Virus record (IMG/VR): IMGVR_UViG_3300028608_000058 | Location: 1 to 29,524 of that record | Origin: a virus | Length of the DNA: 29,524 nucleotides | Direction: 5' to 3' (one strand) | The notes under the pieces: generated by a model | What the model was told of the DNA's origin: nothing | Databases searched by the model: none | Seen by the model: the letters and a program-made list of their open reading frames with translations, nothing else | Part shown: one piece after another, positions 732-10,740 of the stretch | How positions within the stretch are numbered: position 1 is the first letter of the stretch | How the letters are laid out: every line of letters starts with the position of its first letter | Program-made: the position numbers and the translations under genes

Positions 732-2039
732 ATGGCATACGCGGAGAAGCGGGGACCGAACCGGTGGCGGGGCCGCTACCAGCGGCCCGACGGCACCTGG
801 GGGTCGGTCACCCGCGACGACAACGGCCAACTGTTCACGACGAAGACGTCCGCCAAGAACTATGCGGCCGGCCTCGAGACGGACGTGCGGCGGAAGACAT
901 TCCTCGACCCGCGGGACGGGCGCATCACCGTCGGCGAGTGGGCCGACCTGTGGATCGAGTCGGTCGAGCTCGCCAACCGCTCAGACACCACCTACCGGCA
1001 GCGTCTGCGGTCGGTGATTCTGCCCCGGTGGAAAGACGTTCCCATGGGGGACGTGTCCGAGGTCGCGGTGAAGATGTGGGAGCAGCAGCTGCGGAAGCAG
1101 TACAAGCCGCGGTACGTGAAGAGCATCATGTCGGTGCTGCGGGTCATGTTCGACGACGCCGTCTCCTCCAAGGTCCGCGCGGACAATCCGGTGCCCACCC
1201 TCAAGTCGCGCCGGCGTGGCCGGTACAAGGGTAAGCAGCAGCATGACGAGGTCGTCATCGCCACGCCCCGGCAGGCCTGCCTGCTGGCCCGGAACGCGCG
1301 TGAGATGCGCGGTGTCGTCGGCTACACGATGGTCCTCACGATCGCCTACTGCGGGCTGCGGATCTCCGAGGTGGCCGGCCTGCGCCGTTAGCACCTGATT
1401 CTCGAGGATGCCGGGCAGGGGTGCCGTCTGCTCGTTCAGGCGCAGTCCCAGTACGTGGGCGGCAAGAAGGCTCAGGTGGCGCCGAAGTACGAGTCGACGG
1501 GCAGCATCATCCTGCCGCCGTTCCTCGCCGGGCTACTGCGTGAGGTGCTCGCCTCCCACACCTGCGAGTGGGTGTTCCCCAGCGCACGCGGCAAGAAGAT
1601 GGATGTGGGGGCGTACTTCTACGCGGACATCTGGCGGAGGTTCGTCGACGGGCACCAGGCCGAGCGGGACCGGTTCGGCCGGCCGTCGCGGCTGCCGGAC
1701 ATGAAGTCGGTCGCCGGTATCGAGAACCTGGTGCCGCACGGGCTCCGACACTCGATGAAGGTCTGGCTGGATGAGCTGAAGCATCCTCGGGTGGCGGTCG
1801 AGGAGCGGATGCGGCACACGATCCCGGGCGTGGAGGGCACGTACTCGCATACGACTCTGGCGATGGAGAAGGACATCGCGACGGACCTGCAGAAGCTGTG
1901 GGAGGCGTCGGTGGCGGTGGTGGACGATCCCGGGGAGTGGGAGCCGGCCCGGCCGCGGCGGAAGAAGGGGAGTGAGTTGATCTCCCAGGAATCTCCCACA
2001 CCCAACGGATCTGGTCTGTTGGGTGGTTCTGGGTCATGA
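732..2039 (+). pseudogene. int: Tyrosine recombinase (phage integrase) interrupted by an in-frame TAG
   Basis: Reading straight through gives a 435-residue tyrosine integrase in one frame, but codon 220 (1389-1391) is TAG. The N-terminal fragment (219 aa) has an arm-binding type start (RWRGRYQRPDGTWGSV), a SAM-like core-binding region, and the box I arginine in CGLRISEVAGL (R210). The second fragment resumes at an ATG at 1455 and holds box II HGLRH (H336, R339), H362 and the nucleophile in GTYSHTT (Y371). Catalytic residues are therefore split between two polypeptides, neither complete. Frame and spacing are otherwise intact, so a single base substitution (for example CAG, AAG or TGG to TAG) explains the break. 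The enzyme would integrate and excise the prophage. As read, it is probably inactive unless the stop is read through or the two fragments complement each other. Confidence 0.88.
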
Positions 2040-6465: not shown

Positions 6466-6499
6466 AGGCCCGCCAAGACGGGGGATGCTTGGCGGGCCT
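6466..6499 (-). terminator. Terminator after the Ro60 gene
   Basis: A perfect 12-bp stem, AGGCCCGCCAAG / CTTGGCGGGCCT, with a 10-nt loop, 22 nt past the minus-strand stop at 6521. The interval 6323-6465 between this and the opposing terminator shows no gene I can support. Confidence 0.85.
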
Positions 6500-6520: not shown

Positions 6521-8146
6521 TCAGACGGCTGGGGCGTCTTCCCACGGCCAGCGCGCATCCCGACCCGCCTCCAGCAGCGGGATCATCCGGAAAGCCTGAT
6601 CCGTGAGCCCGCCGAACGTGTGGCGGCCGGACTTCCCGGACGGCATCGCGCCCGGCTTGTAGCCGGCCATGTTCCACATGTACACGGGCGTCGCCCGCGG
6701 CACGAGGTCATCGATCGCCGTCTCCCGCATGCCGCCATGCCCCCACATGTTGGAGGGCAGCCAGCCCGGCCGGGTCTGCTCATCGGTGACGATGACGATC
6801 CGATCGTGGGCGAACCAGTGGCGCTTGACCGCGGCCGGGATGTCGGTGCCGCCGATCTGCCCGTAGCCCTCGATGAGCTTCAGGACGCTGCCCCCCTTGG
6901 GGACGGGGATCTCCTTGGACTCGCCACCGAACTCGACCAGGGTCGGCTTCTCCGCCCGCAGGGCGAGCGCGCTACCGAACACTGCGGCCTGCTCGGCGAG
7001 CGTGATGTCCGACCGGTTCGGGGTGGAGAAGCCGTAACCGGGGAACATCGACGGCGACCGGTCCACCAGGATCAGCGTGCTGCCCTTCAGGCGCGGCACG
7101 TTGGCGAGGGAGTGGCCGAGGGCCTGCTCCAGGGCGTGCGCCCACCGCAGGGACGGGGCGTGCTTGTAGGCGGCCCACCAGCGGAACGGGAACATGCGAG
7201 ACTTGGCCACCTGCTCCGGGTCGGAGAACCGGGCGCAGACCTGCGCGGCCACCTCGTCGGACACGCCCGCCTCGTCAAAGTTCCTGAGGTTTCTCGCGAG
7301 CGCCATCAGCCCCATCGACGGGATGATCGCCTTCCACGCGGCCTTGTCCATCGGCCCCTGCAGCCAGCCCGCCAGCGCCTCCCACGTCATGCCGGCGTGG
7401 TTCAGGAAGTCCGCGGCGTCCGGCCGCTTCAGCAGGTCGCGCCGCTTCTGCATATCCCACTTGGCGATCTCGTTGCGGGTGTGGAGCAGTTGCAGCGACT
7501 CGGGGATCGGCTTGTCACGCTTGTGGCGGCGGTCGATGGCGTGCTCGAACAGGTCACCCTGCCACAGAGCGGCCGGGGCCGGGTGGACGAGTTCGATGAC
7601 GTCGCCGAACCGGTAGCCCTTGGAGTCGGTGTCGTACTTGAGAAGGGCCCGCTCCGTGTACAGGGAGCCGAGGGCGTCCTCGATGCCGCGCTTGACGGGC
7701 TTGGGGATGCGGCGGCCGTAGCGGGACGTCCAGTAGCCGAGGAGCTCCCCCGGCTCGTCGGCGCGCCGGAGGACGGAGGCGATGACCTGCCGCGAGTGAC
7801 CCGGCGCCTGAGCATCGAGGCGGGCCTTGGTGAACTCGGCGGCGCCGACGATCGCCGCGGTCCGCATGTTGGCCTCGGTGCGGAGCCAGCCGAGCAGGCC
7901 AGCGGTCCAGTCGGGATCTTCGACGGCGAGCTGCCGGACGAGGGCGGTGTACCGGTCGTCGCGGTCGCCACCCGCCTCGTAGAAGGTATCGGCGCCGACC
8001 ATGTTGGACACCGCGAGCAGGTAGAGCTCGGACCTGGCGTCGCGAAGATGACCGGTGGCGCCCTCGTAGGTGCGGGTCCGCACCCCGGTCGTGGTCACGG
8101 GCGAGTGGACGGCGGGACGGACACTGCGCTGGTTGAAGCGCGACAT
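6521..8146 (-). CDS. rsr: Ro60/TROVE-domain RNA-binding protein (Rsr)
   Basis: A 541-residue Ro60 orthologue. The N-terminal TROVE ring of helical repeats runs from about residue 10 to 340 (SRFNQRSVRPAVHSPVTTT..., ELYLLAVSNMVGADTFYEAG, GLLGWLRTEANMRTAAIVGA). The C-terminal von Willebrand A domain has an intact MIDAS: D362xS364xS366 in LILVDRSPSM, T434 in GGTDIPAA and D455 in IVTDEQ. In known systems Ro60/Rsr binds Y RNA on the outside of the ring and threads misfolded or single-stranded RNA through the hole, often with exonucleases such as PNPase or RNase II/PH. Here two Y RNAs end 37 nt upstream of its start on the same strand, so protein and RNA can come from one transcript. ATG 8146 is chosen for its GAGGGG Shine-Dalgarno. 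Its place in a prophage is unusual; the sequence shows no truncation. Confidence 0.95.
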   Translation of the reverse strand: MSRFNQRSVRPAVHSPVTTTGVRTRTYEGATGHLRDARSELYLLAVSNMVGADTFYEAGGDRDDRYTALVRQLAVEDPDWTAGLLGWLRTEANMRTAAIVGAAEFTKARLDAQAPGHSRQVIASVLRRADEPGELLGYWTSRYGRRIPKPVKRGIEDALGSLYTERALLKYDTDSKGYRFGDVIELVHPAPAALWQGDLFEHAIDRRHKRDKPIPESLQLLHTRNEIAKWDMQKRRDLLKRPDAADFLNHAGMTWEALAGWLQGPMDKAAWKAIIPSMGLMALARNLRNFDEAGVSDEVAAQVCARFSDPEQVAKSRMFPFRWWAAYKHAPSLRWAHALEQALGHSLANVPRLKGSTLILVDRSPSMFPGYGFSTPNRSDITLAEQAAVFGSALALRAEKPTLVEFGGESKEIPVPKGGSVLKLIEGYGQIGGTDIPAAVKRHWFAHDRIVIVTDEQTRPGWLPSNMWGHGGMRETAIDDLVPRATPVYMWNMAGYKPGAMPSGKSGRHTFGGLTDQAFRMIPLLEAGRDARWPWEDAPAV

Positions 8147-8183
8147 AGAAAAGCCCCTCACATGGGAGGGGAGGACCAGCAGT

Positions 8184-8324
8184 GGGGTGCCCGAGATCAA
8201 GTCGGCTGGGGAGACGTAGCGCTCTAGGCCGCTGAGCTACCGACGTTAGACGCCGGACGGGATTTGAACCCGCGTCTCTCTCTTAGCAGGAGAAGTATCC
8301 CCGGCCTGCGCACCGGGCACCCCC
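8184..8324 (-). ncRNA. yrlA: Y RNA with tRNA-like domain (YrlA type)
   Basis: Read on the minus strand, the ends form a perfect 10-bp stem (GGGGUGCCCG with CGGGCACCCC). Above it are the Ro-binding strands GGUGCGCAGG and CUUGAUCU, which correspond to GGUCCGAAGG and CUUGACU of animal Y RNA. A second stem GGCcGGGG / CCCCaGCC follows. The distal part mimics tRNA in permuted order: a GAGACG/CGUCUC stem, a T arm with loop UUCAAAU closed by GCGGG/CCCGU, a 7-bp acceptor-like stem CCGGCGU/ACGUCGG closed by a CUA loop, and a D arm GCUC-AGCGGCCUA-GAGC. The T arm comes before the D arm, and the acceptor strands are joined by a loop, so it is not a real tRNA. This architecture is that of bacterial YrlA RNA. 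Confidence 0.88.
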
Positions 8325-8333
8325 GATGCTGTG

Positions 8334-8403
8334 CCTCCCGAGATCAAGGACGGCCGCGGCGGCACTTTTCCAAAGAAGTAGCCGAGACCTGCGCACCGGG
8401 AGG
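8334..8403 (-). ncRNA. Second, short Y RNA without tRNA-like domain
   Basis: A 70-nt minus-strand element lying 10 nt upstream of the YrlA-type RNA. The ends pair as CCUCCCG / CGGGAGG. The Ro-binding strands GGUGCGCAGG and CCUUGAUCU are the same as in its neighbour, and the 5' halves stay similar through UACUUCU. In place of the tRNA-like part it has a simple hairpin: CGGC, bulged U, ACUU pairing with AAGUGCCG around a CUUUGGAA loop. It looks like a paralogue made by duplication, keeping Ro binding but losing (or never having) the tRNA mimic. A TTGTCA element at 8443-8448 (minus strand) may be part of the promoter, but no convincing -10 at normal spacing was found. Confidence 0.75.
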
Positions 8404-8494
8404 TGCATGAAGTTGTGTTGGTACGACTGTAACCCAAAGGGGTGACAACGTGGGGGGATTGTGCGTGCCCAGCAGTGTGGCACGGGGTGGGGCG

Positions 8495-10021
8495 CTATGC
8501 GGCCCTACCGAGCGCCTTCGTTTCCAGCTCCATCAGGTTCTCAAGTCCATGCCGCGTTGGCTTCCAAGTGGAGGTGACCACGTCCAGTAGCTCGCCCCCT
8601 ACAGTCTGGCCAGCGTGCGGGAACAGTCCAGCACTGTAGAAGGTGGCGGCGATCACGCGCATGGCGGGGATGTCCGGCCCCTTCCATCCCGAGTAGTCGG
8701 GTATCTCTGCGGTGTCGAACTCGCCAGTGTGACGCTGGAGCAGTTTCGCCGCCCGGTCGTTGTGGTCGTGAAAGTCGCTGCCGTAGATCTGCCGGATGAC
8801 CTTGGCTGACGTACCGGCCGGAAGTCCCAGGGCTTCGTCTGACTCGGCCAATGCATCTCTGCCGTAAACAGCGTTCAGGGCCTGTGGGTTGATGCGCTGG
8901 AGGAGCAGGCACATCTCCCTTGTTGCTTGGTGATCGCGCGCCAGCTTCGTCAGCCACTCATGCAGCGCGCCCTCAAGGAGATGAGGGACGGTGAAGCCCG
9001 GGATGTGCGCGGCCCCCAGGGCGAGCGCGTAGGTTGCGACATCCCTGTCCCAGTCCTGCCGCACGACCCCGAGCCAGCCGGGAGTAGTCGCGCGGTAGAG
9101 GTCGATAGCTTCGCGTGTCGCTGGATCGTCTGAGACCCATTCGACGAACTCCGACTCCTTCTTGTCGATCCCTGCTTCCCGGGCGAGCGCGACCCACGGG
9201 TCCATGGCGCGGGCCGCCCATGGGATGAGCGACAGGTGCTGCGCCATGTGGTCGGCGTCGCGGAACTCGTTCCGGTACGACTCCCACCCGCGGGCGTGGA
9301 CCCCTTCCTTGGAGCCCCAGCGGTCTCCGCTGTCCACGCTGGAGAAGGCGCCGCAGTAGGCGCGCAGGTACTGCTCCAGGGCGGTCTCGACATTACTTCG
9401 CCGCAGATGGGCGTCACGCCTCTCTTGGTCCTGAGTGCTATCCCCTGCAACCGTGACCCCACCGCCGGGGTGCAGCAGGTAGCCCGTGGACGGATTCGCC
9501 TTCAGGTGCCGGTCGACTTCGCGGTACTCCTGATACGCGCTCCAAACCGCTGTGGGGATCTTCCGTATCGGCACGTCGGCGGGTGAGATCGGTCCGCCGG
9601 TTGCGTCGCGGATCTGGTCGGCGACCTGCCGCCAGCTGGCTTGCCGCCAGGCCAGGTTCATTGCGTCCTCTTCGGCCTGCCGCCGCTTCGCTTCCTCGCG
9701 GCTGGCCTTACGGCGCTTTGTGTTGCCAGGCTGATTGCCAGCGACGTTGAGGATGTCGCCGCGTTCAGCGTGCGCCCGGATCTCTTCCTTCTCCGCCTCG
9801 TCTAGCCGGTCGGCGGGCACGTTCTCGCGGATCGGAACGATCTGCGGCGTGTACCCCTCGAAGGACAACTCCTCGATCCAGGCCCGCACGAGAGGAGCGG
9901 GAGCGGCCAGGTGGCCGGCGAGCCTCACCTCGATCGGCTTGGTGGTCTGCCCGATGTAACGGACCTCGTTGGTCCGCGGGTCGACGAGGACGTAGATCGT
10001 GCCAGTGGCTTCGGTCGTCAC
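8495..10021 (-). CDS. GIY-YIG domain protein with large unknown C-terminal region
   Basis: A 508-residue protein. Residues 5-100 form a GIY-YIG nuclease-type domain: TIYVLVDPRTNEVRYIGQTT gives the paired (G/T)IY and YIG strands, EVRLAGHL carries the conserved Arg/His region, and RLDEAEKEEIRAHAERGDIL followed by NVAGN supplies the candidate catalytic Glu and the closing Asn. After a basic helix (NTKRRKASREEAKRRQAEED), about 370 residues of mixed, mostly helical sequence match nothing I recognise. GIY-YIG domains cut DNA in phage homing and repair enzymes, and some restriction enzymes use them. The GTG start at 10021 overlaps the recombinase stop (GTGA), so translation is coupled. It lies upstream of the Y RNAs and Ro60 gene on the same strand, with 91 nt between its stop and the first Y RNA. 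Confidence 0.85.
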   Translation of the reverse strand: MTTEATGTIYVLVDPRTNEVRYIGQTTKPIEVRLAGHLAAPAPLVRAWIEELSFEGYTPQIVPIRENVPADRLDEAEKEEIRAHAERGDILNVAGNQPGNTKRRKASREEAKRRQAEEDAMNLAWRQASWRQVADQIRDATGGPISPADVPIRKIPTAVWSAYQEYREVDRHLKANPSTGYLLHPGGGVTVAGDSTQDQERRDAHLRRSNVETALEQYLRAYCGAFSSVDSGDRWGSKEGVHARGWESYRNEFRDADHMAQHLSLIPWAARAMDPWVALAREAGIDKKESEFVEWVSDDPATREAIDLYRATTPGWLGVVRQDWDRDVATYALALGAAHIPGFTVPHLLEGALHEWLTKLARDHQATREMCLLLQRINPQALNAVYGRDALAESDEALGLPAGTSAKVIRQIYGSDFHDHNDRAAKLLQRHTGEFDTAEIPDYSGWKGPDIPAMRVIAATFYSAGLFPHAGQTVGGELLDVVTSTWKPTRHGLENLMELETKALGRAA

Positions 10022-10668
10022 TTCGCGATCTCCTTAGGGCTGCCAGCCGTGAGGGATGCGCGTCCTGCCGCGAGCTCCGGCACGTACTTGTAGATGGTGG
10101 TGCGGCTGACGCCGAGCATTTTGGCGATGGAGCTGATGGAGGCTTCCGGGTCGGTGAGCATGGATCGGGCGTGCCGGATCTGCTCCTCCGTCATGGCCGG
10201 CGGTCGTCCAAGTCGCTGTCCGCGGGCGCGGGCGGCGGCGATGCCTTCGTGGGTGCCTTGGACGATGAGTTCGCGGATGAACTCGGCGAGGGCGGCGAAG
10301 ACGTGGAAGACGAGTCGGCCGCCGGGGGTGGTGGTGTCGAGGGCTTCGTGGAGGGAGCGGAAGCCGATGCCGTCCTTGCGGAGGTTGCCGACGATGCTGA
10401 TGAGGTCTTGGATCGAGCGGCCGAGGCGGTCGAGGGAGGGGACGATGAGGGTGTCACCGGGGCGGAGGTAGTCGAGGGCCTTCTGGAGTTCCTCGCGTTC
10501 GGCGTTCTTGCCGGACTTCTTGTCGGAGAAGATGCGCTGGCAGCCGCAGGACTGAAGGGCGGCGATCTGCCGGTCGAGGTTCTGGCCCTTGGTGCTGACG
10601 CGGGCGTAGCCGATGAGGGCGCCCCCGCCTCCGACTGGGGCGAGAAGGTCTTGGGTGTCGGGTTCCAT
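10018..10668 (-). CDS. Serine recombinase, resolvase/invertase type
   Basis: A 216-residue small serine recombinase. The N-terminal catalytic domain has IGYARVSTKGQNLDRQ with nucleophile S25, then DTLIVPSLDRLGRSIQDLIS containing the conserved Arg cluster, and the long E-helix (GRLVFHVFAALAEFIRELI) leading to RARGQRLGRPPA. The C-terminal HTH (SISSIAKMLGVSRTTIYKYV) is of the Hin/Pin type. It makes and rejoins double-strand breaks at a short dyad site, causing inversion or resolution. ATG 10668 is chosen; a longer frame runs back through the inverted repeat at 10677-10740, which is more likely promoter or target DNA. Translationally coupled to the GIY-YIG gene. It is too small to be a large serine integrase of the phiC31 type. 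Confidence 0.92.
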   Translation of the reverse strand: MEPDTQDLLAPVGGGGALIGYARVSTKGQNLDRQIAALQSCGCQRIFSDKKSGKNAEREELQKALDYLRPGDTLIVPSLDRLGRSIQDLISIVGNLRKDGIGFRSLHEALDTTTPGGRLVFHVFAALAEFIRELIVQGTHEGIAAARARGQRLGRPPAMTEEQIRHARSMLTDPEASISSIAKMLGVSRTTIYKYVPELAAGRASLTAGSPKEIAK

Positions 10669-10676
10669 GAGTCCAT

Positions 10677-10740
10677 TGTCCAACAAAGGGTCATCGTTGG
10701 TATATGAACATTGAGACTTTACGTACACCCTTTTTGGACA
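10677..10740. repeat. Inverted repeat pair upstream of the serine recombinase
   Basis: TGTCCAACAAAGGGT (10677-10691) and ACCCTTTTTGGACA (10727-10740) are inverted copies differing by one base insertion, 35 bp apart. A direct copy of the outer end, TGGACAGTC, occurs at 10736-10744 and again at 10807-10815. The layout just upstream of the recombinase start suits a recombination site or operator for it. Confidence 0.6.

What the first reader, a model, noticed from the sequence alone, without database searches (positions are those of the whole stretch)
6521..8403. Prophage-borne Ro60 ribonucleoprotein: TROVE protein with Y RNAs encoded just upstream
The Ro60 gene is intact (TROVE ring plus vWA with complete MIDAS). 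The DNA 37-257 nt before its start folds, on the same strand, into two Y RNAs with the Ro-binding strands GGUGCGCAGG and CUUGAUCU. Known Ro60-Y RNA pairs act in RNA quality control and rRNA decay, often with exonucleases. In a lysogen this could protect phage RNA, steer host RNA decay after stress, or serve as defence. As RNAs and protein can share one transcript, the Y RNAs could be processed from the rsr 5' leader, linking their dose and allowing feedback by Ro60 binding its own leader.
Basis: partly seen in the sequence, partly recalled or inferred. Interest (0 to 1): 0.9.

Follow-up and report, generated by a model that had tools for sequence, protein, structure and literature searches.

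The report
Phage Ro60 cassette with tRNA-mimic RNAs
A Streptomyces-type phage carries its own copy of the RNA-binding ring protein Ro60 together with two small partner RNAs, one of which folds like a complete transfer RNA cut and rejoined in a different order, anticodon arm included; phage Ro60 and Y RNAs were already known, but the intact anticodon arm and the built-in control hairpin appear new.

Summary
Two Y RNAs lie just upstream (8408-8326 and 8324-8184). The second is YrlA-type: Rfam matches its tRNA-like core, and a model of this RNA finds partners beside rsr in phages not used to build it. In 61 Streptomyces genomes, Y RNAs occur in 34 of the 39 with a TROVE gene and in none of the 22 without. 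Beyond the finding: (1) the YrlA RNA is a circularly permuted, complete tRNA cloverleaf. In 35 of 51 distinct relatives, this window included, the anticodon arm is intact (5 bp, 7-nt loop, mostly CUNNNAA); Rfam's YrlA model has that stem split. (2) A -10-like box precedes Y RNA 1. (3) A hairpin with the Shine-Dalgarno sequence in its 3' arm sits directly before rsr in 46 of 56 leaders, against 28 of 216 other genes. (4) At least four phage 'tRNA' annotations beside rsr are, or overlap, these Y RNAs. Phage Ro60 and Y RNAs are known, so this is a new variant of a known kind. Function (RNA decay, repair, decoy) remains inference; 'defence' is unsupported.

The parts
6521..8146 (-). rsr: Ro60/TROVE ring protein, 541 aa, MIDAS complete (D362-x-S364-x-S366, T434, D455)
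   Evidence: translate; phrog_850; TROVE; invariant columns; profile hits to 1yvp, 2nvo, 9kop; AF2 and Foldseek
8326..8408 (-). Y RNA 1 (short, no tRNA domain); stem AUGC..CCUCCC / GGGAGG..GCAU; Ro motif GGUGCGCAGG and CUUGAUCUC
   Evidence: 33 distinct relatives; R1 hit 8327-8407, 42 bits
8184..8324 (-). Y RNA 2 (YrlA type) with circularly permuted tRNA module; closing stem GGGGUGCCCG / CGGGCACCCC
   Evidence: Rfam YrlA E 2.7e-4; 51 distinct relatives; R1 155 bits (window in training set)
8278..8294 (-). intact anticodon arm UUCUC-CUGCUAA-GAGAG; 4-nt V loop 8277-8274
   Evidence: fixed-geometry test: 35 of 51 distinct relatives, stem covaries
8257..8273 (-). T arm GCGGG-UUCAAAU-CCCGU
8240..8256 (-). 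closed 7-bp acceptor stem CCGGCGU / ACGUCGG capped by CUA (no CCA end)
   Evidence: own 90.6% paired vs 55.6% when dealt anew, 44 distinct stems
8221..8237 (-). D arm GCUC-AGCGGCCUA-GAGC
8426..8431 (-). -10-like box TACAGT, 34 nt before the GGUGCG motif of Y RNA 1
   Evidence: TANNNT at this place in 29 of 38 loci vs 0 of 38 further up (Fisher 4e-13)
8147..8171 (-). leader hairpin CCCCUC-CCAUGU-GAGGGG plus CUUUUCU: SD in the 3' arm, terminator-like, ends at the rsr start codon
   Evidence: 46 of 56 leaders vs 28 of 216 other genes (Fisher 6e-23)
6467..6498 (-). 11-bp inverted repeat GGCCCGCCAAG / CTTGGCGGGCC just after rsr, probable terminator of the cassette
   Evidence: read from sequence

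Best explanation
The cassette is a self-contained phage 'moron' that makes a Ro60 ribonucleoprotein. One promoter drives Y RNA 1, YrlA and rsr. Most transcripts probably end at, or are translationally held by, the SD hairpin, so Y RNAs outnumber Rsr. Rsr binds the shared GGUGCGCAGG/CUUGAUCUC element of both RNAs. The YrlA RNA then presents a closed, circularly permuted tRNA body (acceptor, T, D and, in this variant, anticodon arm) that recruits a host tRNA-binding partner, most likely the exonuclease PNPase as in Deinococcus RYPER, and so re-targets host RNA decay or quality control during phage stress or induction. Shown here: protein fold, both RNAs, permuted tRNA geometry, co-occurrence with rsr, -10 box, SD hairpin (all from sequence). 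Inferred: RNP assembly, PNPase partner, transcript gating, and effect on the phage.
For: Protein. RNAs and covariation. Y RNAs beside rsr in phages not used for the model (VanLee, BearBQ, prophiGD43A-5, Quantum, Neville, Kela, pSt2308, GiJojo, Frankenweenie). Y RNAs in 34 of 39 Streptomyces genomes with TROVE, 0 of 22 without. Promoter, SD hairpin. rsr is the only gene common to the loci, with endolysin upstream in 22 loci and integrase downstream in 15: moron position. Literature: YrlA stem binds Rsr and its tRNA-like domain binds PNPase, forming RYPER (PMC8394870).
Against: No RNA or binding data. PNPase binding is carried over from Deinococcus/Salmonella. Only some relatives have a U-run after the SD hairpin, so termination is not the general rule. 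Swapping of the tRNA module on the rsr tree (10 changes) shows that the module evolves freely, which sits uneasily with one fixed partner.
Confidence: 0.55

Rival explanations
1. tRNA decoy or shield: the intact, closed tRNA body with a normal anticodon loop occupies host anticodon nucleases or tRNA-processing enzymes during infection; Rsr stabilises the decoy.
For: Intact anticodon arm kept by compensatory change with a U33/A37/A38 loop and variable anticodon. Phage rsr sits in tRNA arrays (GiJojo, Atuin, pSt2308) or beside an RNA ligase (Kela). A competitive-inhibitor role of YrlA against an anticodon nuclease was proposed in PMC7790460.
Against: 14 of 48 rsr loci have a split anticodon stem; intact arms are not enriched in viral loci (23/30 vs 11/18, p 0.33). 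Salmonella YrlA was not cleaved by the nuclease.
Confidence: 0.15
2. RNA repair/tRNA quality control: the RNP hands damaged tRNAs to repair enzymes, as in rsr-rtcBA operons.
For: RNA ligase next to rsr in Kela; jumbo-phage survey places TROVE with RNA repair.
Against: The window and the prophage relatives examined show no ligase, RtcB or kinase as a recurrent neighbour of rsr.
Confidence: 0.15
3. Genuine tRNA-Ser(GCU) gene upstream of rsr, as ARAGORN calls it.
For: ARAGORN call 8248-8321.
Against: The acceptor stem is closed by a 3-nt cap with no CCA; the D arm lies after the T arm; the same place is called Asn, Gly, Val, Met, Lys, Ile in relatives; the acceptor arm covaries in the permuted pairing.
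Confidence: 0.02
4. The leader hairpin is only the Y RNA terminator; its overlap with the SD is compactness, not control.
For: U-run in close relatives.
Against: Several relatives keep the SD hairpin without a U-run (L055, L077, L028, L045).
Confidence: 0.3

Closest known systems
Bacterial Rsr with YrlA Y RNA (Salmonella, M. smegmatis; Rfam RF02553)
   Same: Rsr beside Y RNAs; closing stem with Ro element; tRNA-like D, T and acceptor arms in permuted order; Rfam model matches relatives full length (L014 54.8 bits)
   Different: In Rfam's model the anticodon stem is long-range; here a local 5-bp/7-nt anticodon arm is intact. Score on the window is below Rfam's cut-off.
Deinococcus radiodurans RYPER (Rsr, Y RNA, PNPase)
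   Same: Ro60 fold (2nvo match); Y RNA encoded by rsr
   Different: Phage-borne; PNPase association not tested
Phage Ro-like proteins (phrog_850; Thermus phage phiLo Ro60 structure 9l5y)
   Same: Same family; 68 phage records hold a homologue, many named 'Ro-like RNA binding protein'; one structure solved
   Different: The records inspected annotate no Y RNA; some call them tRNAs
Permuted tRNA genes of algae and archaea (from memory)
   Same: 3' half precedes 5' half
   Different: Here the acceptor ends are joined by a short cap inside a Y RNA; no sign of processing to a tRNA

Membership tests
Ro60/Rsr protein | TROVE HEAT-ring plus vWA fold | tested here: met
   PF05731 1.2e-11; Foldseek 1yvp, 2nvo prob 1.00
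Ro60/Rsr protein | MIDAS DxSxS...T...D | tested here: met
Ro60/Rsr protein | binds Y RNA | not testable with these tools
   needs pull-down or gel shift
Bacterial Y RNA | encoded next to rsr, long stem with conserved Ro-binding element | tested here: met
YrlA (RF02553) | tRNA-like T, acceptor and D arms in permuted order | tested here: met
YrlA (RF02553) | reaches the Rfam gathering score | tested here: not met
   29.1 of 69 bits; relatives up to 54.8. I therefore call it YrlA-type, not a curated member
YrlA (RF02553) | anticodon stem long-range, no local anticodon arm | tested here: not met
   local arm 5/5 bp, long-range 2/5 bp in the window
RYPER | PNPase bound by the Y RNA module | not testable with these tools
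   no interaction data
Functional tRNA | free acceptor end with CCA | tested here: not met
   acceptor strands joined by a CUA cap
Anti-phage defence | match to a PADLOC model | tested here: not met

The most novel reading that the evidence does not exclude
Actinophage Y RNAs carry a complete permuted tRNA with a working anticodon arm that is read by an anticodon-loop-recognising host factor (anticodon nuclease, modification enzyme or ribosome), making the Ro60 RNP a decoy or sensor for host attack on tRNA.
Probability: 0.13. Interest if true: 0.85.

Novelty: new variant of a known kind. Interest (0 to 1): 0.58.

Why it matters
Bacterial Y RNAs are described as mimicking the D, T and acceptor arms of tRNA (PMC8394870). 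Here a widespread actinobacterial and phage branch mimics the whole tRNA, anticodon arm included, and switches repeatedly between intact and split anticodon stems. That gives a natural set of variants for asking what the tRNA mimicry is for. It also corrects phage annotation: in VanLee the only annotated tRNA lies inside a Y RNA. And it supplies a testable link (SD hairpin) between Y RNA and Ro60 dosage.

Tried and rejected
Real tRNA-Ser gene: rejected. Y RNA as chance folding: rejected by conservation and covariation. Link of intact anticodon arm to viral rather than host-genome loci: no support. MFE z-score of the leader: uninformative (median -0.9), so replaced by a comparison with other genes. 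Conserved partner gene beside rsr: none found. Phage BearBQ and prophage prophiGD43A-5 first looked like orphan Y RNAs; both have a Ro-like gene. In alignment A2 I gave too long a window stretch for Y RNA 1; no conclusion rests on that row. Key papers (Chen 2014, Sim 2020) could not be read: Chen 2014 is not held, Sim 2020 I did not look up; what I say of them is from memory or from papers that cite them. The decoy reading is a hypothesis only.

Full report
WHAT IS THERE. The window is an IMG/VR virus record of 29,524 bases with capsid, connector, tail, tape-measure, lysis and integrase genes, so it is a tailed, temperate-type phage or prophage. Relatives of its rsr lie in Streptomyces and other actinobacterial genomes. 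On the minus strand, rsr runs from an ATG at 8146 to 6521 (541 aa). Its family profile reaches solved Ro60 and Rsr structures. Its predicted model (pLDDT 85.8, pTM 0.86) matches Ro60 structures, including Ro60 of Thermus phage phiLo. MIDAS residues are conserved.

THE RNAS. Upstream lie a short Y RNA (8408-8326) and a YrlA-type Y RNA (8324-8184). In 47 viral and 36 genome loci, plus phage records, I extracted 33 distinct short and 51 distinct long units. GGUGCGCAGG and UGAUCUCGGG are nearly invariant (partly because units were picked by these motifs); the stems and the tRNA module vary. Rfam's YrlA model matches the window's module at E 2.7e-4 and relatives full length at up to 54.8 bits, E 7.8e-10, always below the curated cut-off. 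A covariance model from this family finds Y RNAs in phages that were not in its training set, from VanLee (113 bits) down to Frankenweenie (43 bits). In a draw of 61 Streptomyces genomes, Y RNAs occur in 34 of 39 with a TROVE gene and in 0 of 22 without (Fisher 4e-12).

A COMPLETE, PERMUTED tRNA. With offsets fixed by canonical tRNA geometry and no alignment, the module reads anticodon arm, V loop (4-5 nt), T arm, acceptor 3' strand, short cap, acceptor 5' strand, two bases, D arm. Acceptor strands pair in 90.6% of positions with their own partner, against 55.6% when partners are dealt anew (44 distinct stems; none of 5000 reach it). In 35 of 51 units a local anticodon arm is intact: 32 with all 5 pairs, 3 with 4, a 7-nt loop that is CU-NNN-AA in nearly all, and the anticodon varying (GCU 14, GUU 9, GUC 3, others). 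The 13 distinct stems pair in 96.9% of positions, against 77.0% when dealt anew. In most of the other 16 the anticodon stem is instead long-range, the topology of Rfam's YrlA model. If the two halves are put back in normal order with CCA added, ARAGORN calls a tRNA in 35 of 36 and in 0 of 720 shuffles. This last test is partly circular, since arms were chosen by pairing.

CAUTION ON THE STATISTICS. Dealing partners anew keeps column make-up but not kinship, so related sequences inflate it, and the D-arm and V-loop offsets were chosen to give the best pairing. The size of the acceptor effect and the number of distinct stems make chance unlikely; for the anticodon arm the margin is smaller (best shuffle 93.8%), so this is the less certain of the two claims. 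The comparisons of SD hairpins and -10 boxes likewise count related loci as if independent.

SWITCHING. On a tree of 48 Rsr proteins the intact and split topologies need at least 10 changes, 7 of them forced by well-supported branches. The window's own group of four close relatives (93-94% identical Rsr) contains both.

CONTROL ELEMENTS. A TANNNT box lies 31-34 nt before the Ro motif of the first Y RNA in most of 29 of 38 loci that have one, and in none in an equal stretch further up. The rsr Shine-Dalgarno sequence lies in the 3' arm of a hairpin of 5 bp or more in 46 of 56 distinct leaders, against 28 of 216 other genes. Some relatives use quite different sequences for the same hairpin (L027, L029, L067). 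The hairpin is followed by a U-run only in part of the set, so it may act as terminator, SD lock, or both.

CONTEXT. rsr with its Y RNAs is the only widely shared feature of the loci; an endolysin-family gene lies upstream in most of 22 loci and an integrase-family gene downstream in most of 15 (families annotated from one representative each). This is the position of a cargo gene (moron). In other phages rsr sits in tRNA arrays or, in Kela, directly after an RNA ligase. Overproduction of the Ro-like protein of mycobacteriophage LeBron is toxic to its host (PMC13148394).

MECHANISM. The RNP model follows known bacterial systems: the YrlA stem holds Rsr, the tRNA-like part holds PNPase, and together they steer decay of structured RNA (PMC8394870). 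I judge this most likely at about 0.55, with decoy and repair roles as rivals. None is demonstrated here.

NOVELTY. Y RNAs near Ro60 in phages were reported earlier (Chen et al. 2014; title via PMC7790460, content from memory). The intact anticodon arm, its repeated switching and the SD hairpin are not described in the texts I could read, but the key papers were not read, so priority is unproven.

Noticed in passing
window 732-2039 (+): The phage integrase reading frame is interrupted by a single in-frame stop at 1389-1391; both parts match phrog_1 in order. Broken gene or sequencing error.
   Followed up: partly
L097 7766-7912, L096 8336-8475, L100 5994-6140, L095 8100-8240; further G029, G045, G046, G065: Orphan Y RNAs far from any rsr gene; L096, L097 and L100 share only about 200 nt, with their own -10-like box and inverted repeat. 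In the genomes searched whole a TROVE gene exists elsewhere.
   Followed up: partly
L088 1204-1275 (VanLee), L085 1269-1343 (GiJojo), L102 1245-1335 (Frankenweenie), L099 5798-5876 (prophiGD43A-5): GenBank tRNA annotations (Arg, Arg, Pro, Thr) that lie in or overlap Y RNA hits; VanLee's is its only annotated tRNA.
   Followed up: yes
L002 6374-7279: Ku-like DNA end-binding gene downstream of rsr in the closest relative and some others.
   Followed up: no
window 8495-10728 (-): DNA invertase/resolvase gene overlapping a 508-aa ORF of unknown family, directly upstream of the Y RNA promoter.
   Followed up: no
L014, L017, L018, L025, L038, L041: Loci that appear to hold three Y RNAs (long, short, long) before rsr.
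   Followed up: no
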